47,685 nucleotides of DNA from Pseudomonadota bacterium (lineage in GTDB: Bacteria; Pseudomonadota; Gammaproteobacteria; Steroidobacterales; Steroidobacteraceae): the NCBI GenBank assembly GCA_021805275.1, contig JAJZFQ010000255.1, positions 1-47,685 of the forward strand, read 5' to 3'. The notes beneath the pieces are model-generated. The model was given only the letters and a program-made list of their open reading frames with translations. It ran no database searches and had not been told where the DNA came from. The translations under genes and the position numbers were made by a program. Positions within the stretch are counted from its first letter, which is position 1, and each line of letters opens with the position of its first letter. Shown here in pieces: positions 27,400-34,179 of the stretch.

Positions 27400-29490
27400 T
27401 CACGCACCTGCAGTGCGGACCTCCTCGAGCCAGCGGCCGGTGAGCTCATCGAGCAGTTGCGCGCGCACCTGTGCGCGCTGCGGACCGGTGCGCCCGGCGG
27501 CCGTTGCGAGCTGGTGATGTCGGCTGAGCAGCCGCTCGAGCGTGCCGCCGTGCAGCGGGTTGGCCCGGATGAACTCATCGACGATGGCCCGCGCGCCGAC
27601 GAACTGCGCCACCAGCTCGGGTCGATCCTCGATGGCGGCGATCTGCTGCTCCCAGAGCAGGTAGGCGGCCATCGCACCGATGGCGGTGCGCGGCCGGCGA
27701 GCATTGACCGGGTAGCGGTAGCCGCGCAGCCACCCCGACACCTCCTCTCGCGCCATCGGGCGGGCGATGCCGTAGCCCTGTCCGCGGTCCGCGCCCAGCA
27801 CCGCGGCCGCCTCGACAATCCCGAGGTTCTCCAGGCCTTCGACGGTCACCGGAATGTCGAACGCGTGCGCCAGGCGAGTCAGGTACAGCATGAACTCCAC
27901 GGCCCGCTTCGGCTGGCGCAGCGCCCCGCGCACCAGACCGCCGTCGATCTTGACCTCATCGAACGGATATTGATCCATGCGCAGCAGCGAGCTGTGCCCC
28001 GAGCCCAGATCGTCCTGGGCGATCTGCACCCCGGCGGCGCGCAGGGACTTCAGCGCCTCGTGCTGTTCGGCCGTCCAGTCCCCCCCGTCGGGTGTCTCGA
28101 GCACCTCGAGCTGCACGCGGTGGGCGGCCAGATTGCAGCGCTGTAGCACCGACAGGCAGGTTCGCTCGTAGCGCCGGTCCAGAAACCCCGCGGCGGGGAA
28201 ATTGATGGCCAGGGTGACCGTGATCCCGTCGCCCTCGAGCAGCTGCGCGTCGGTGCCCAGCTGCTCAAGACCGAGTTCGAACAATCGGTGCAGTTCGTCT
28301 GCGCCGAACGCGGGCAGGAACCGCTGCGGCGCAATCAGCTCGCCGCTCGCGGCCCGCAGGCGCGCCAGCGCCTCGAGCTTCACGAGACGCCCGTCGGACA
28401 GGTTGATGATCGGCTGGTAGTGGAACACCAGACGGCGCTCCCCGAGCAGCCGCCGGTACGCCTGCTGCGTGCGCAGCGGCACGACCGCTGCGGACATGCG
28501 CTGCTCGACGGCGGCGCTGAGCAGCAGCTGCGCGTGACGCAGCAGTCCCTGCATGCTGGCGGTGGAGAACAGGCCCGGCCAGGCGCTATAGAGGCTGACG
28601 AGGGCGATCGAGCGGCCCTGCGCATCGAGCAACGGCACCGCGGCGCTCGAACGAAAGCCCAGGCGTGCGCCGATTTCATGCCAGGGAGCTTTGTCCGACT
28701 CGCGCAGCCACGCATCGGAGACGACGATCTCCCCGCTGCGCCAGGCGCGCCCCCCGGGTCCCTGGCCGGCGGGGAGCAGCGGATCGACGCTGAGCCGGGG
28801 TACCGCGCCGCTCTCCATGGCGTGGTGGTAGGCCTCGGCCGGTGCACCGTAGGACTGCTCGACCTGCAGCTCCCCTGCGGCGTCGACCCGCGCGAAGAAC
28901 GCGCAGATGCTGCCCGGCAGCGCACCGATGGTCTCCAGCGCACCGTGCACCAGGTCGCAAAGGTTCTCGGCCGAGAGCACGTGATGATTGAGTTCGGCGA
29001 ACGCTGCGGCGCTGGCGGCGTCGATGTTCGCATACCGCTGCAGCTGTCCCTGCAGATCGCAGAGCAGGCGTTGTGCCATCAGGTGCACCAACCGTTCGCG
29101 GGTCTCGCTCGCGCCGATGCGTTGCTGCAGCAGACCGTACAGGCGGTTCTGGTAAAAGGCATAGGCCTCGATCAGCACCGACAGGCCCACGCCGGTCAGC
29201 TGGTGCACCGCCCCGGCACGCTGCGCCCGCTGCAGGTGCGCCGCGCGCTCGAGGTCCGCCGAGAGCATCGAGCGGATGTGCTCGGCCTCGCGCCCGCACA
29301 GCTGAGCGAACTCCGCCGCTGAGAGCGCCGCGATGACCCGCGGCATGCGGTCCGTGTCGCGCAGGAGCGCGTAGAACTCACCGACCGCTTCGGGGGCGAG
29401 CACGGCAAAATCGCTCTGCAGCGGGTGCAGCAGCTCGCTGGCGAGGGGGCCATACGGATCGGTCACGGCCGCTTGCGGATCGACCATCAT
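27400..29490 (-). CDS. Globin-coupled GAF-EAL cyclic-di-GMP phosphodiesterase
   Basis: A protein of about 696 residues. The N-terminal 160 residues resemble a globin-coupled sensor; the proximal His is probably in GAVHQLTGVGLSVLIEAYAF. A GAF domain follows (residues about 165-340; SICAFFARVDAAGELQVEQS, FRSSAAVPLLDAQGRSIALV). The EAL domain (about 365-600) keeps the key residues: LEALARL, the Asn in AINFPAAGF, the Glu in LEVLETP, DD in IAQDDLGSGHSSL, the Lys in DEVKIDGGL, and Glu in VEGLEN, so it is likely active on c-di-GMP. A helical C-terminus of about 100 residues is unassigned. AGGAG fits the ATGs at 29490/29487; the frame extends to 29514. Oxygen or NO control of biofilm is inferred. Confidence 0.85.
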   Translation of the reverse strand: MMVDPQAAVTDPYGPLASELLHPLQSDFAVLAPEAVGEFYALLRDTDRMPRVIAALSAAEFAQLCGREAEHIRSMLSADLERAAHLQRAQRAGAVHQLTGVGLSVLIEAYAFYQNRLYGLLQQRIGASETRERLVHLMAQRLLCDLQGQLQRYANIDAASAAAFAELNHHVLSAENLCDLVHGALETIGALPGSICAFFARVDAAGELQVEQSYGAPAEAYHHAMESGAVPRLSVDPLLPAGQGPGGRAWRSGEIVVSDAWLRESDKAPWHEIGARLGFRSSAAVPLLDAQGRSIALVSLYSAWPGLFSTASMQGLLRHAQLLLSAAVEQRMSAAVVPLRTQQAYRRLLGERRLVFHYQPIINLSDGRLVKLEALARLRAASGELIAPQRFLPAFGADELHRLFELGLEQLGTDAQLLEGDGITVTLAINFPAAGFLDRRYERTCLSVLQRCNLAAHRVQLEVLETPDGGDWTAEQHEALKSLRAAGVQIAQDDLGSGHSSLLRMDQYPFDEVKIDGGLVRGALRQPKRAVEFMLYLTRLAHAFDIPVTVEGLENLGIVEAAAVLGADRGQGYGIARPMAREEVSGWLRGYRYPVNARRPRTAIGAMAAYLLWEQQIAAIEDRPELVAQFVGARAIVDEFIRANPLHGGTLERLLSRHHQLATAAGRTGPQRAQVRAQLLDELTGRWLEEVRTAGA

Positions 29491-29570
29491 GCCGCTCCTC
29501 ATCGAACCAGACACGCACCGCGGCGCCTGCGAGGGGTTGCGCCGGCCGCGGCGAAACCGCGCTCAGCCGG

Positions 29571-29626: not shown

Positions 29627-30415
29627 TCACTGCGGCGGGGATTTGAAGGGCTCCAGGCCCCGGCGCACCGCCTCGCGCTGACTCTCGCTGCTGGTGACCG
29701 TGGTGCCGCTGGCGAGCACGAGGATGAAGTCCCCCCGCAATGTGCGGCTGATTTCGCGCACCTGGTTGAGGTTCACCAGCCACGAGCGGCTCACGCGCAG
29801 CATCGGCAGGATCTGCAGCTTGCGCTCCATCTGCTGCAGCGTGTCGCGCTCCGCGATGCTCTCCCGGCCCACGATCAGCTGGACGTAATTGCGGTCCGCC
29901 TTGACGGCCTCGATCAGCTCGATGTCGAGCAGTCGCTGAGAGGGGCCGATTCCGACCAGCATGCGGGGACGGGCGTCGCGCTGCCGCTCGCGGGCGTGCT
30001 CGAGCTTCTCGATCACCGCCTGGAGCGCCTCGCTCCGTTGGCTCGCGCTTTCGACCGCCACACGCCGCCGCACCCGCTGCAGCGTGTCGGCGAAGCGATC
30101 CCGATCGAACGGCTTGAGCAGGTAGTCGACGGCGCTCAACTCGAAGGCCTCGGCGGCGTACTGGTCATAGGCCGTCACGAACACCACGAGCGGCGGTGTG
30201 CGCCGCTCGAGCGAGCGGACCAGTGCGATGCCATCCATCGATTTCATCTTGATATCGAGGAAGATCAGGTTCGGCGGCGTGCGCCGGATGGCCTCGAGCG
30301 CCGTCTGGCCATCGCAATATTCCCCGACGACGCGCAAATCCGCCTCCGCCTCGCAGTACTCGCGCAGCGCGCGCCGCCCGGCAACCTCGTCATCGACCAG
30401 AATGACCTCGAGCAT
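29627..30415 (-). CDS. LytTR-family response regulator
   Basis: A 262-residue regulator. The receiver domain has the acidic pair in VILVDDE, the phosphoacceptor D54 in LIFLDIKM, and the conserved Thr and Lys in VFVTAYDQ and DYLLKPFDRD. A charged linker (residues 120-150, ERQRDARPR) leads to a LytTR DNA-binding domain at about 155-255 (IEAVKADRNYVQLIVG, MLRVSRSWLVNLNQV). It is 11 bases downstream of the sensor kinase gene and forms a two-gene operon with it. Similar pairs (AlgR/FimS, LytSR) govern exopolysaccharide, pili or cell lysis; the target here could include the EAL gene. Confidence 0.9.
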   Translation of the reverse strand: MLEVILVDDEVAGRRALREYCEAEADLRVVGEYCDGQTALEAIRRTPPNLIFLDIKMKSMDGIALVRSLERRTPPLVVFVTAYDQYAAEAFELSAVDYLLKPFDRDRFADTLQRVRRRVAVESASQRSEALQAVIEKLEHARERQRDARPRMLVGIGPSQRLLDIELIEAVKADRNYVQLIVGRESIAERDTLQQMERKLQILPMLRVSRSWLVNLNQVREISRTLRGDFILVLASGTTVTSSESQREAVRRGLEPFKSPPQ

Positions 30416-30426
30416 TGCAATGCCTC

Positions 30427-31539
30427 CTAACGGGTTGTCGGCACGATCAGTTCGAGCAGACGCGGCAGACGGATCTCACTCGTCCAGCGCCCCGGCGGTC
30501 CCGCCCCGGCCAGCAGCTGCGCACGGCCGGGAAAGTGAATGGCGAGCCGCTCGCGCACGTTACGCAGGCCGATGCCCTCGGAGCGTCCCGGCACCGGCAC
30601 CGCCATGGTGTTGATGACACGCAACGTCAGGTGCGCCTCGGTGGCCTCGACCTGCACCTCGACCGTCACGATCCCGGACTGACCGGCCAACCCGTGCGCC
30701 ACCGCGTTCTCCACCAGGGGCTGGAGAATTAGGCTCGGCACCCACACCTCGCGCAGTTCCTCGGCGCCCGGAACGCTCACCTGCAGGCGCTCGGCGAAGC
30801 GCCGCTGCTGCACCTCCAGATACAGACGCGCCAGCGCGAGTTCCTCCTCGAGGCGCCAGAACTCGCGTTCGCTGGCGTTGAGCAGACGGCGCAGCAGCTC
30901 TCCGAGCCGCACGACCAGGGTGCGCGCGGCGGGCGGGTCCCAGTCGATCTGACCATGAATGGTGTGCAGCAGGTTGAACAGCGAGTGCGGCGAGAGCTGC
31001 ACGCGCAGCGCAGCCAGCCGTGCCGTCGCAAGCCCGCGCTCCAGGCAGGCCGAACGGATCTCCGCATCCCGCAGCGAGCGATACAGCTCAAAGCCCCGCA
31101 CCAGCGCAATGGCGAATCCATAGGTGAGCAGGAACTCCATCAGACTCGACAACCACACCGGCGCGGCAAGCGCGGCGGCCTGCGCCATGGAATTCACCTG
31201 CACGTGCGGTGCGGCCGCGAGATCTCCGGCCAGTACATCACCCAACACCAGACACGGTGCCGCGAGCCCCGCGAAGGCGATTCCGAGCAGCAGCTGCGGT
31301 CCCACCCGGCGCGTGAGCGGCGTCCAGCCGATACGCCGCGAGGCCCACAGGCAGCCGAGCAGCACCGGGTACAGGAGCAGGTGCTGCAGCAGCTGTGGTC
31401 CCCAGGGCGCATAGAAGTGCGATACGTGCAGGACGTCGAGTGCGGACTGCAGGCTCTGGGCGCTCAGGCTGTCGGCCGCTGCGACATACATCCAGAAGCC
31501 ACTGATGATGAGCAGCGAGACGCGCCGGCGCTCACTCAC
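30427..31539 (-). CDS. LytS/AlgZ-like membrane sensor histidine kinase
   Basis: A 370-residue kinase. Four or five hydrophobic segments span residues about 8-150 without a large periplasmic domain. The HisKA_7TM/His_kinase domain has the phosphoacceptor H185 in LSPHSLFNLLHTI (family consensus PHFLFN) and the ATP-binding blocks LILQPLVENAVAHGL and GIGLRNVRERL. It is the first gene of the kinase-regulator pair. The signal is unknown; the lack of a sensory domain suggests sensing within the membrane. Confidence 0.88.
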   Translation of the reverse strand: MSERRRVSLLIISGFWMYVAAADSLSAQSLQSALDVLHVSHFYAPWGPQLLQHLLLYPVLLGCLWASRRIGWTPLTRRVGPQLLLGIAFAGLAAPCLVLGDVLAGDLAAAPHVQVNSMAQAAALAAPVWLSSLMEFLLTYGFAIALVRGFELYRSLRDAEIRSACLERGLATARLAALRVQLSPHSLFNLLHTIHGQIDWDPPAARTLVVRLGELLRRLLNASEREFWRLEEELALARLYLEVQQRRFAERLQVSVPGAEELREVWVPSLILQPLVENAVAHGLAGQSGIVTVEVQVEATEAHLTLRVINTMAVPVPGRSEGIGLRNVRERLAIHFPGRAQLLAGAGPPGRWTSEIRLPRLLELIVPTTR

Positions 31540-31992
31540 GGTTCACCTGCCCCAGCGTGACACCCTGCTGCAGCCCGGCGCGGTGCTGCGCCCGGTGTGG
31601 AGGGACGAAACCGACGCAAGCAGGGACGATCTCGTTGTTCCCCGCCTCCCCATAAGACGACTTGGAGCGTCTCATATCCTCATGGTCTCGCGTAACGCCG
31701 AAACCCCCGTCGAACATGCCCGTCAGGCCCTGGTCCGCGCGGCGTTGCGACTCCTGGGACTGCCGCGGCGCGGCCGCCGGGGCGAGTTCGAGCGTATGCG
31801 CCGGTTGGTTTTTGGACCTGTCGAGTTTAGGACCGGGCCCTGCCCCCGGCAACAACCTGTCGACGCACCGGACCGCACGCGCACGGCCGTCTCGATTCCC
31901 TGCACCGCACCGCGCGCGGGCGCATCGAACCGCCGGCGGTGCGCCCCGTATCGCCCGTATCGCACTCATCCGCATCCACACGCGAGGCTCCC
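31540..31992 (+). other. Divergent intergenic region before the methyltransferase gene
   Basis: About 450 bases between the kinase gene (minus) and the borosin-type methyltransferase (plus). It should hold both promoters. Open frames here show no recognisable domain. No -24/-12 element or clear dyad was found. Confidence 0.4.
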
Positions 31993-32916
31993 ATGAGCGG
32001 AACACTGACGGTGGTCGGCACCGGAATCACTGCGGTCAGCCAACTCACGCGCGAAGCCGAGTACTGCCTCTACACCGCCGAGAAGGTCTTCTATCTGGTG
32101 ACCGATCCGCACACCGAGGCGTTCGTGAGGCGACTTAACCGGTCGGCCGAATGCCTCAAGCCGCACTACGAGCACGGCACCGGCAAGCCGCGCCTGTGGG
32201 CCTACCAGGACATGGTGGAGGCCATCCTGCGGCCTGTACGTGCCGGCCGGCGCGTGTGCGCGGCCTTCTACGGTCATCCCGGGGTGTTCGTGTACCCCTC
32301 GCACGAGTCGATCGTGCGGGCGCGCACGGAGGGCTACCAGGCAAAGATGCTGCCCGGGGTGTCCGCCGAGGACATGATGTTCGCCGACCTGGGCTTCGAT
32401 CCGGCGCTGCCGGGTCTGCAGACCTACGAGGCGACGGGCTTCATGCTGTTCAAACCCACGATCGATGCGCGCATCCCGCTGGTGTTGTGGCAGATCGGAG
32501 TGGTCGGGCTGCTCACCCCGGAGCCGGCGCCCCGCCGGGAGAATCTCCAGGCCCTCGTCGACACTCTGCTGCAGACCTATCCGTCCGATCACGAGGTCGT
32601 CCTCTACCAGGCGTCCGCGTACGACAACGTCGCCCCGGTGCTGCATGTCGCGGCGCTGGGCCGGCTGGCCGAGCAGGACATCAACGCACTCAGCACGCTG
32701 TACCTTCCGCCCTGCCGCACCGCGCAGCCTGACGCCGCCAGCGCCGCGCTCCTCGGCGTGCGCGTGGAAGACCTGTCCATCTCGCAGCGCGCGGGCGCGG
32801 CGCGTATTCCGGGCAAGGCCTACGGCATCAGTCACCCCGAGCGACACGGCTGGGTGACAGGCCGCAGCGCGCATGAAGCATCGTTGCCGGCGCCGCTGAC
32901 GCCGCATGCGGCGTGA
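31993..32916 (+). CDS. Borosin-type peptide alpha-N-methyltransferase (SonM/OphMA-like)
   Basis: A 307-residue enzyme of the tetrapyrrole-methylase fold. The SAM site begins TLTVVGTGI; EKVFYLVTDPHTE, AAFYGHPGVFVYPSH, KMLPGVSAEDMMFADLGFDP and LVLWQIGVVG are the blocks typical of borosin enzymes, which methylate backbone amides of a ribosomal peptide iteratively. R67 and Y71 (PRLWAYQDM) have the spacing of the catalytic Arg/Tyr pair in OphMA. Cobalamin or siroheme methylases (CbiF, CysG) lack these blocks. The fungal enzymes carry their substrate at the C-terminus; this one ends at HEASLPAPLTPHAA, so the substrate must be a separate peptide, as in Shewanella SonA/SonM. GAGG lies 5 bases before the ATG. 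The nearest candidate substrate starts 115 bases downstream. Confidence 0.88.
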   Translation: MSGTLTVVGTGITAVSQLTREAEYCLYTAEKVFYLVTDPHTEAFVRRLNRSAECLKPHYEHGTGKPRLWAYQDMVEAILRPVRAGRRVCAAFYGHPGVFVYPSHESIVRARTEGYQAKMLPGVSAEDMMFADLGFDPALPGLQTYEATGFMLFKPTIDARIPLVLWQIGVVGLLTPEPAPRRENLQALVDTLLQTYPSDHEVVLYQASAYDNVAPVLHVAALGRLAEQDINALSTLYLPPCRTAQPDAASAALLGVRVEDLSISQRAGAARIPGKAYGISHPERHGWVTGRSAHEASLPAPLTPHAA

Positions 32917-33031
32917 GACAGCCATGGCCGCCTGCCCCCACCATCCCCCGCTACCGGCCTGTCGCCCCAAACACACCGACCGCTGCCGGACCGACCCTCC
33001 CCCTGCTCCCCCACTCGAGGACACTCAACCC

Positions 33032-33178
33032 ATGAACACCCGAGAACCGATCAACAGCCTCCAGCTCGGCCACAGCGGCCGCCTCGTCCTGCCGCTCACC
33101 TCCGGCGCTCAGCCGGCGCGCGCCAACGAGTTGACCGTCTGGCCGGGAACCTCGATCACGGTTGTGCTCGTGGCGTAG
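33032..33178 (+). CDS. Candidate split-borosin precursor peptide
   Basis: A 48-residue ORF directly after the methyltransferase on the same strand. The leader-like first 33 residues (MNTREPINSLQLGHSGRLVL and a small Ala/Pro-rich part) precede a strongly hydrophobic end, LTVWPGTSITVVLVA. Val/Leu/Ile/Thr/Gly-rich ends are the sort of core that borosin enzymes N-methylate. The ATG at 33032 has GAGG 11 bases upstream; the same frame is open back to 32906 with a Cys/Pro-rich extension (PHHPPLPACRPKHTDRC) that looks like non-coding sequence. It does not show the helical LigA-like leader of SonA, so the pairing is an inference from position and core chemistry. No second copy was seen nearby. Confidence 0.6.
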   Translation: MNTREPINSLQLGHSGRLVLPLTSGAQPARANELTVWPGTSITVVLVA

Positions 33179-33190
33179 CGCACAGGGCGC

Positions 33191-33233
33191 ACGGCGCGCA
33201 CACCGGCGGGACGGCCGAGTCTTCGCGCGCCGT
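33191..33233 (+). terminator. Hairpin after the candidate precursor gene
   Basis: Perfect 9-bp arms ACGGCGCGC (33191-33199) and GCGCGCCGT (33225-33233) around a 25-base loop, 12 bases after the stop. There is no T-tract, so it is a weak terminator candidate or an mRNA-end stabiliser. Confidence 0.35.
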
Positions 33234-33426
33234 GACGCGCGCCTCACCTCACGCCCGAACGGCCGTCGGGCTGGCCGGTGACGGGCGCGGGCTGCTCGAG
33301 CGCGAGCGCTTGCGCACCCGGCAATGCCCGGTGCATGCTCATGGCAGACCGAGATGGCGCACCGCACCGACTCGTCGGTGGCGGACCTGCGCCGAGCTGC
33401 ATGATGCACTGAGAAAGGGACCGCTC

Positions 33427-34179
33427 ATGACCCGCACACTGGCCGTTGGCCTCGCATTGCTCCTGACGCTCTGCGGCTGCGACGCTGCGCATGCGCAGCC
33501 GGCCGCGGCCGCCACGACGAGCGCGCAGGCTGGAACGTTCGGCGCTCCGGGCGGCGCTGCGCTGTTGCCGCACAGCCGCCTCTGGACGCCCGGGACCAAT
33601 TTCACGGTGCTCTCGCCCGCTGAACCCACCGGCGCACCGCCGGGCAAGGTGCAGGTGTTGGAGGTATTCTGGCTTGGCTGTCCGGTGTGCTACGCCTTCG
33701 AGCCGTACGTACGCGCGTGGCGCAAGAGCCTGCCCCCGTACGTGCAGTTCGTGCGGGTTCCGGTGATGTGGGACAGCCTGCGCGAGGCGCATGCGCGGCT
33801 CTTCTATACGCTGGAGGCGCTCGGTCGCGCCGACCTCATCGGAACGGCCTTCGACACGCTGCACCGCCTGCAGCAGCAGGACGGCACGGAGACGGTGATG
33901 TTCAGCAAGGTCCCGGGCCAGAATCTCGCGCTGCAGGAGGCCTTCGCCGAGCGCCACGGCATCACCGCCTCGGCGTTCGCGGCGGCCTACCATTCGTTCG
34001 ACGTGCAGATCCAGCTGCAGAAGGCTAAGCAGATCATGCACACCTATGAGATCGACGCCACACCGACGCTCATCGTCGACGGCCGCTACCGCACCGGTCC
34101 GCCGCAGGCCGGCGGGTTCCCACAGCTGATCTCGCTGATCAACTTTCTGGCGAAATGGGATCACGATCATCCGCACTAG
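33427..34179 (+). CDS. DsbA-like exported thiol:disulfide oxidoreductase with a CPVC active site
   Basis: A 250-residue exported protein. The signal region LAVGLALLLTLCGCDAAHA offers both a lipobox and a signal-peptidase I site. The thioredoxin-fold domain has EVFWLGCPVCYAFEPYVRAW as active site, so the usual CPHC of DsbA is CPVC, which should shift redox potential. The cis-proline region is IDATPTLIVDGRYRTGP. The frame is open upstream, but AAAGGGA six bases before the ATG at 33427 supports this start. It lies 250 bases after the candidate borosin precursor on the same strand; whether it belongs to that locus is unclear. Confidence 0.85.
   Translation: MTRTLAVGLALLLTLCGCDAAHAQPAAAATTSAQAGTFGAPGGAALLPHSRLWTPGTNFTVLSPAEPTGAPPGKVQVLEVFWLGCPVCYAFEPYVRAWRKSLPPYVQFVRVPVMWDSLREAHARLFYTLEALGRADLIGTAFDTLHRLQQQDGTETVMFSKVPGQNLALQEAFAERHGITASAFAAAYHSFDVQIQLQKAKQIMHTYEIDATPTLIVDGRYRTGPPQAGGFPQLISLINFLAKWDHDHPH

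What the first reader, a model, noticed from the sequence alone, without database searches (positions are those of the whole stretch)
31993..33178. Candidate split borosin RiPP locus: stand-alone alpha-N-methyltransferase plus a separate 48-residue peptide
The 307-residue enzyme carries the borosin-specific blocks FYGHPGVF, LPGVSAED..FADLG and LWQIGVVG and the R67/Y71 pair, but no substrate peptide at its own C-terminus. A short ORF 115 bases downstream on the same strand ends in LTVWPGTSITVVLVA, a plausible N-methylated core. Split borosins are known from Shewanella (SonA/SonM), but this peptide lacks the SonA-type helical leader, so precursor type and product would be new.
Basis: partly seen in the sequence, partly recalled or inferred. 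Interest (0 to 1): 0.9.

Follow-up and report, generated by a model that had tools for sequence, protein, structure and literature searches.

The report
Split borosin with 48-residue precursor peptide
A bacterial gene pair encodes a peptide-backbone N-methylating enzyme and a conserved 48-residue peptide that is probably its substrate; it sits opposite a two-component regulator whose predicted DNA site also lies at a lasso-peptide cluster in several relatives, hinting that two kinds of modified peptide are switched together.

Summary
The 307-aa enzyme is a borosin-type alpha-N-methyltransferase (PDB best dbOphM 3e-55, SonM 7e-51). The short ORF is real: a gapless 48-aa homologue lies 100-145 nt behind the enzyme gene in all 10 close-relative genomes found, plus the window (11 of 11), always with a V/I/L-rich end. 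It has no borosin-binding domain (BBD), whereas SonA-like BBD precursors lie near the enzyme in 48 of 70 more distant loci and in none of the 11 close ones. Most likely a split borosin whose precursor lacks the helical leader. BBD-less split borosins are already a named category (PMC11395268, legend), so a new variant, not a new kind; methylation is inferred, not shown.

New: a divergent LytS/AlgZ-type kinase and LytTR regulator adjoin the pair in 11 of 11 loci, with a conserved direct repeat of 21-bp period between. The same repeat lies at a lasso-peptide cluster in 6 of 10 genomes. In relatives without the borosin, the kinase-regulator-repeat unit faces an UrcA-like gene (9 of 9 examined): the circuit is older, and the peptide need not be its ligand.

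The parts
29627..30415 (-). Response regulator with LytTR DNA-binding domain (262 aa)
   Evidence: PF00072 84 bits, PF04397 58 bits; homologue next to the kinase in 10 of 10 close loci, the L007 copy cut by a contig end
30427..31539 (-). Histidine kinase, LytS/AlgZ type (370 aa); hydrophobic N-terminal half by eye, no transmembrane prediction run
   Evidence: PF06580 63 bits; present in 10 of 10 close loci
31602..31637 (+). Two direct repeats (GGGACGA core), period 21 bp: predicted LytTR binding site
   Evidence: conserved in 11 of 11 intergenic regions; 1 match in window (2 mismatches), 0 in 100 shuffles; binding untested
31669..31676 (+). GTCTCATA, -10-like element; CATA begins 50 bp after the start of box 2, towards the methyltransferase
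   Evidence: CATA 49-50 bp after box 2 in 11 of 11 borosin loci; promoter function inferred, the sigma70 consensus scan found none
31993..32916 (+). Borosin-type alpha-N-methyltransferase, stand-alone, 307 aa
   Evidence: PF00590 63 bits; dbOphM 3.2e-55, SonM 6.8e-51; Foldseek top hits SonM/OphMA
33017..33021 (+). GAGGA, possible ribosome-binding site of the peptide ORF
   Evidence: read in the sequence; similar purine-rich stretches before all 10 aligned ORFs by eye
33032..33178 (+). 48-aa peptide, predicted BBD-less precursor
   Evidence: gapless homologues in 10 of 10 close-relative genomes; 17 database clusters including the window's own
33146..33175 (+). Predicted core: residues 39-48 (GTSITVVLVA), V/I/L-rich C-terminus
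   Evidence: V/I/L fraction of the last 8 residues: window 0.625, mean 0.74 and lowest 0.62 over 22 distinct peptides; 0.13 over 693 background ORFs. Core role inferred

Best explanation
A split borosin. The stand-alone enzyme binds the separate 48-aa peptide and iteratively methylates backbone amides in its hydrophobic C-terminal segment. The conserved N-terminal and central part (R4, G13, G16-R17, R30-A31, P38) takes the place of the helical BBD as recognition leader, perhaps docking on the enzyme's clade-specific tail; an unlinked protease would then release the N-methylated end. The operon is switched by the divergent LytS/AlgZ-type kinase and LytTR regulator through the paired repeat. Shown: homology, conservation, linkage, the conserved repeat and its reuse at lasso clusters. 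Inferred: methylation, core position, leader docking, regulator binding, release.
For: Enzyme family and active-site residues. Peptide conserved 11 of 11 without gaps; one peptide and one enzyme per genome. dN/dS 0.15-0.43 in 5 of 7 within-clade pairs. Peptide and enzyme distances correlate (Mantel r 0.83, 0 of 1000 permutations, 9 loci; common descent alone would also give this). SonA-like BBD precursors near the enzyme in 48 of 70 distant loci, 0 of 11 close ones; several end in the same kind of blunt hydrophobic tail (FIVL, FIII, LIIF, LVLVV). Twelve of those BBD ORFs as a profile match SonA in the PDB at about 1e-16; the 48-aa family does not match that profile (hhalign probability 0.1).
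Against: No biochemical evidence. The C-terminal segment is not hypervariable as many RiPP cores are: mean column entropy 1.14 bits in residues 39-48, against 1.18 in 1-17 and 1.86 in 18-29. The other two within-clade dN/dS values are 0.77 (window/L001) and 1.59 (L007/L010, few changes), and 5 between-clade pairs exceed 1. The peptide model is not confident (pLDDT 63, pTM 0.29). Apart from kinase and regulator, no neighbour (protease, exporter) is shared by all loci. The residue aligned with OphMA Y63, a mutated active-site position, is K56 here (numbering offset inferred).
Confidence: 0.75

Rival explanations
1. The 48-aa peptide is a small partner or regulator of the enzyme (or an independent small protein), and the enzyme methylates another, unlinked substrate.
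For: Conservation is spread along the whole peptide and its C-terminus is no more variable than its N-terminus. The close loci lack a BBD precursor, so the substrate could be elsewhere.
Against: In the ten genomes the BBD profile (E up to 0.1) hits 3 of 10, at about 1e-4, on other contigs than the cassette; of two places fetched, the one read looks like a LigA dioxygenase subunit beside a MarR-type regulator (names recalled). The blunt hydrophobic end is what several BBD precursors of the same enzyme family carry.
Confidence: 0.15
2. Signal circuit: the N-methylated end is exported and sensed by the divergent kinase, which then activates the borosin operon and the lasso cluster, as in peptide-inducer/kinase/LytTR-regulator bacteriocin systems. 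This is an extension of the best explanation.
For: Peptide, kinase and regulator occur together in 11 of 11; the paired repeat lies at their own promoter region and at a lasso cluster in 6 of 10 genomes.
Against: The same kinase-regulator-repeat unit occurs in relatives without the peptide, facing an UrcA-like gene, 9 of 9 examined. The kinase's N-terminal part is only slightly less conserved than its catalytic part (0.52-0.62 against 0.61-0.65, window against all but L001), no sign of fast ligand co-evolution. No exporter in the cassette.
Confidence: 0.1
3. Fused borosin: the enzyme's own conserved C-terminal tail is the substrate.
For: The tail (AYGITHPE.PGWVT in outline) is conserved in the 14 relatives aligned, and fused borosins carry their core at that end.
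Against: The tail is not V/I/L-rich by eye, is conserved in sequence, has no BBD match, and ends in a variable, low-confidence stretch.
Confidence: 0.05
4. Ordinary tetrapyrrole methylase (precorrin type or YabN) with a coincidental downstream ORF.
For: PF00590 hit and weak YabN/CobJ/CobI-like hits.
Against: The 4 NCBIfam hits are far below cut-off (best 40.5 bits against 525); all 25 PDB sequences matched at E 0.001 are borosin enzymes.
Confidence: 0.02

Closest known systems
Type IV split borosins (SonM/SonA, Shewanella oneidensis; PMC8429565, passages seen)
   Same: Stand-alone alpha-N-methyltransferase of the same family, separate small peptide encoded next to it, methylation expected near the peptide's C-terminal end.
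   Different: SonA's leader is a five-helix BBD; this peptide is 48 aa, has no BBD and no confident fold. The enzyme is 44 aa longer than SonM (307 against 263) with a conserved tail.
Class 4 split borosins: enzyme and core separate, no BBD known (PMC11395268; abstract, introduction, results start, discussion and legends seen)
   Same: This gene arrangement, by the definition in the figure 1 legend.
   Different: The members of that class are in papers I could not read, so whether this 48-aa family is among them is unknown. The searches made listed no paper that links borosins to a LytTR system or lasso cluster (listings only).
Fused fungal borosins OphMA/dbOphMA
   Same: Catalytic domain (best PDB hits); V/I-rich core style (recalled).
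   Different: Core and clasp are fused to the enzyme there and absent here.
LytS/AlgZ-LytTR two-component systems (PMC4847170 and PMC4064291, passages seen)
   Same: PF06580 kinase, LytTR regulator, direct repeats with 21-bp period, within the rule of 9-11 nt repeats and 11-13 nt spacers.
   Different: Different target genes; binding untested. Resemblance to the AlgR site CCGTTCGTC is weak: GTTCGTC occurs on the reverse strand of at least one box in 8 of 11 loci but not in the window, L001 or L002, and my AlgR scan with up to 2 mismatches did not hit the boxes.

Membership tests
Borosin (alpha-N-methylating RiPP) | Enzyme homologous to OphMA/SonM methyltransferases | tested here: met
   dbOphM 3.2e-55, OphMA about 1e-53, SonM 7e-51; the 50 Foldseek rows shown are all borosin enzymes, best E 6e-26, though TM is only 0.43 with rmsd 17
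Borosin (alpha-N-methylating RiPP) | Active-site residues (OphMA mutant positions Y63, Y66, R72, Y76, Y98 from PDB titles) | tested here: met
   Y59, R67, Y71, Y93 stand at Y66, R72, Y76, Y98 (numbering offset inferred) and are invariant in the 45 sequences aligned; the fifth, Y63, is K56 here
Borosin (alpha-N-methylating RiPP) | Backbone N-methylation of a ribosomal peptide | not testable with these tools
   needs mass spectrometry
Type IV split borosin | Separately encoded precursor next to the enzyme | tested here: met
   48-aa ORF conserved 11 of 11; that it is the precursor is inferred
Type IV split borosin | SonA-like BBD in the precursor | tested here: not met
   no PDB match to SonA at E up to 10; hhalign probability 0.1 against a BBD profile; no BBD within 1.5 kb of the enzyme in 11 of 11 close loci
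Class 4 split borosin (no BBD) | Separate enzyme and core, no BBD in the cluster | tested here: met
   weak BBD-profile matches on other contigs in 3 of 10 genomes, one read and LigA-like
LytS/AlgZ-LytTR two-component system | PF06580 kinase plus LytTR regulator | tested here: met
   NCBIfam best for the regulator is BtsR, 148 bits under its cut-off 246
LytS/AlgZ-LytTR two-component system | Regulator binds the paired repeats | not testable with these tools
   repeat geometry fits; binding needs an assay
Lasso-peptide cluster (second site, in relatives) | B protease, C cyclase, exporter | tested here: met
   scanned for L088/L089 only: PF13471, PF00733, PF00664+PF00005; B of L089 NF033537 76 bits over cut-off 33, C best lasso model 59 bits under cut-off 525; homologues in the other loci by profile. 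Precursor peptide not identified

The most novel reading that the evidence does not exclude
An N-methylated borosin peptide is the extracellular signal of a LytTR circuit that turns on its own operon and a lasso-peptide cluster: a borosin with a signalling role and a Gram-negative counterpart of three-component bacteriocin control.
Probability: 0.1. Interest if true: 0.9.

Novelty: new variant of a known kind. Interest (0 to 1): 0.6.

Why it matters
In 2021 no split-borosin pathway was tied to a final natural product (PMC8429565, passage). A very short precursor without the folded leader would be a handy substrate for enzymatic N-methylation. A predicted common regulatory site for a borosin and a lasso peptide gives a testable handle on when and why such peptides are made.

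Tried and rejected
Ordinary tetrapyrrole methylase: rejected. Fused core on the enzyme tail: disfavoured. A leader ORF from the conserved ATGG after the -10-like element: its stop overlaps the enzyme start (ATGA) in 6 of 11 loci, but its sequence is not conserved between clades to the eye; left open. Search for other conserved small ORFs around the enzyme: mostly alternative frames of the enzyme gene, so of little use. sigma70 scan of 31500-33500: 0 promoters, 1 terminator-like site on the other strand (shuffles 0.0 and 0.4). Pfam and NCBIfam with 5 peptides and the PDB with the peptide profile: nothing but one de novo protein at E 1.1. UrcA in PMC5552118: 0 occurrences.

Corrections and limits. 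In some searches the second protein was read in the wrong frame (33034 instead of 33032); redone. The box pattern is noisy: at 3 mismatches it hits 20 of 150 family genomes (5 carry the peptide), its reversed control 9 of 150, so single 3-mismatch sites mean little. Of the 21 sites in the 15 genomes without the peptide I fetched 15, picked by eye as box-like; 9 of those 15 lie beside the kinase-regulator pair, and six sites were not looked at. The -10-like element is at 49-51 bp in 11 of 11 borosin, 5 of 9 UrcA, 3 of 6 lasso and 2 of 7 other sites; two lasso sites have GTAAG at 46, and the remaining sites have none near that distance. The BBD count comes from a profile iterated on the same loci from two seeds, last round at E 0.1, and includes frames too long to trim. 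In one search the background ORFs include some of the peptides themselves. The close group was defined on the best 80 of 130 relatives.

Full report
Observation. The enzyme ORF 31993-32916 (307 aa) and the short ORF 33032-33178 (48 aa, 115 nt further on) are as described. The enzyme hits PF00590 (63 bits); all 25 PDB sequences matched at E 0.001 are borosin enzymes, best dbOphM 3.2e-55, SonM 6.8e-51. The model's Foldseek rows shown are all borosin enzymes, though the overall superposition is poor (TM 0.43). Y59, R67, Y71 and Y93 are invariant in the 45 sequences aligned, chosen from the 120 listed homologues.

The peptide. One scan of species genomes found 130 relatives and kept the best 80; ten loci (L001-L010) form a close group at 71-94% identity, all titled as proteobacterial metagenome-assembled genomes. 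Nine have sequence behind the enzyme, and all nine carry an ORF of exactly 48 aa, 100-145 nt downstream, aligning without gaps. The tenth (G009) has it on another contig piece beside the enzyme's C-terminal part. Each of the ten genomes has one peptide and one enzyme, the latter split over two contigs in G009. A profile search gave 17 protein clusters, all 48 aa, one being the window's own. M1, R4, G13, G16, R17, R30, A31 and P38 are invariant in 27 rows, 22 of them distinct. The last 8 residues are V/I/L-rich in all 22 (mean 0.74, lowest 0.62; 693 background ORFs 0.13). In a sample of 150 genomes of the family of G002 only 5 have the peptide.

What replaced the leader. A profile started from two ORFs beside distant enzymes and iterated finds SonA-like BBD precursors within 1.5 kb of the enzyme in 48 of 70 distant loci and in 0 of 11 close ones. 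Twelve of those sequences as a profile hit SonA in the PDB at about 1e-16 and the OphMA clasp weakly. The 48-aa family does not match them. Several BBD precursors end bluntly in FIVL, FIII, LIIF, LVLVV or MIIF, like the 48-aa ends ITIVL, VVLVL and ITVVLIF; 17 of 55 BBD ORFs have at least half V/I/L/F/M in the last six residues, so this is a minority style. The simplest reading is that this clade kept a core style and lost the helical leader. The enzyme's extra tail, conserved in the clade, could be the new docking site; that is conjecture.

Regulator. Upstream and divergent, a PF06580 kinase and a LytTR regulator adjoin the pair in the window and in 10 of 10 close loci, the L007 regulator cut by a contig end. 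No other neighbour is shared by all. Between kinase and enzyme, 11 of 11 loci share two GGGACGA-headed direct repeats with a 21-bp period, which fits the LytTR rule of 9-11 nt repeats with 11-13 nt spacers (PMC4847170, passages). The likeness to the AlgR consensus (PMC4064291, passages) is weak and fails in the window itself. A CATA element lies 49-50 bp after the start of the second box, on the enzyme side, in 11 of 11.

Regulon. Allowing 3 mismatches, the repeat occurs 18 times in the ten genomes, reversed control 0: ten at the cassette, seven at six lasso-peptide loci (G003, G004 twice overlapping, G005, G006, G008, G010) and one with no identified target (G008:C29). Profiles place a B protein, C protein and ABC exporter at five of the six; the G010 contig ends early and shows the exporter and part of C. 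Named families were scanned for L088 and L089 only. A B-type protein is found in 8 of 10 genomes, not in G001 and G007; in G002 and G009 no box was seen beside it in the DNA held. The window's own genome is not held, so its lasso status is unknown.

Older than the borosin. In the family sample 20 of 150 genomes match the repeat, 5 of them carriers of the peptide; the reversed control matches 9. Of 15 sites fetched from the non-carriers (of 21), 9 lie beside the orthologous kinase-regulator pair, and in all 9 the gene on the other side is an UrcA-like ORF (two of nine checked, TIGR04433 59 and 77 bits over cut-off 25). The circuit therefore appears older than the borosin, which speaks against the peptide being its obligatory ligand, but not against a clade-specific one.

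Verdict. A credible split borosin of the BBD-less kind, with a precursor family in which the 5 members scanned hit no Pfam or NCBIfam model and an unexpected regulatory link to lasso peptides. Searches of the open library for borosin with quorum sensing, borosin with two-component, and lasso peptide with LytTR listed no paper on such a link by title or abstract (listings only). The papers that define split types V-X were not readable here.

Noticed in passing
31682-31996: About 310 nt between the -10-like element and the enzyme start; an ORF from a conserved ATGG ends on the enzyme's ATG (ATGA) in 6 of 11 loci, but its sequence is not conserved between clades by eye.
   Followed up: partly
L106, L108, L112 (boxes at 5322-, 5463+, 1272+): The paired repeat precedes an unannotated ~336-aa protein family shared by three genomes' loci without the borosin; no NCBIfam hit for the one scanned.
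   Followed up: partly
L107, L109, L114-L120: UrcA-like gene divergent from a LytS/AlgZ-LytTR pair across the repeat in 9 of 9: a possible regulator for UrcA proteins.
   Followed up: partly
L087-L092: Lasso loci with a conserved ~350-aa protein with a weak DnaA-C-like match ahead of the exporter, and in several a second B-C pair.
   Followed up: no
P0014, P0016-P0019, P0021, P0023, P0031, P0034; L037 8001-9629: Proteins of about 440-540 aa that appear to carry two borosin-type methyltransferase domains in tandem, judged from the printed sequences.
   Followed up: no
L013, L015, L020, L021: Borosin-type enzymes in Thermoplasmata archaeal MAGs with BBD-like ORFs upstream; the three printed tails end in Lys/Arg-rich stretches, also seen in bacterial L025, L036 and L041.
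   Followed up: no
33430-34179: Thioredoxin/DsbA-like protein behind the peptide, shared only with L001 among the close loci, so probably not part of the cassette.
   Followed up: yes
27400-29514: Protoglobin-GAF-EAL protein, shared only with L001 among the close loci.
   Followed up: no
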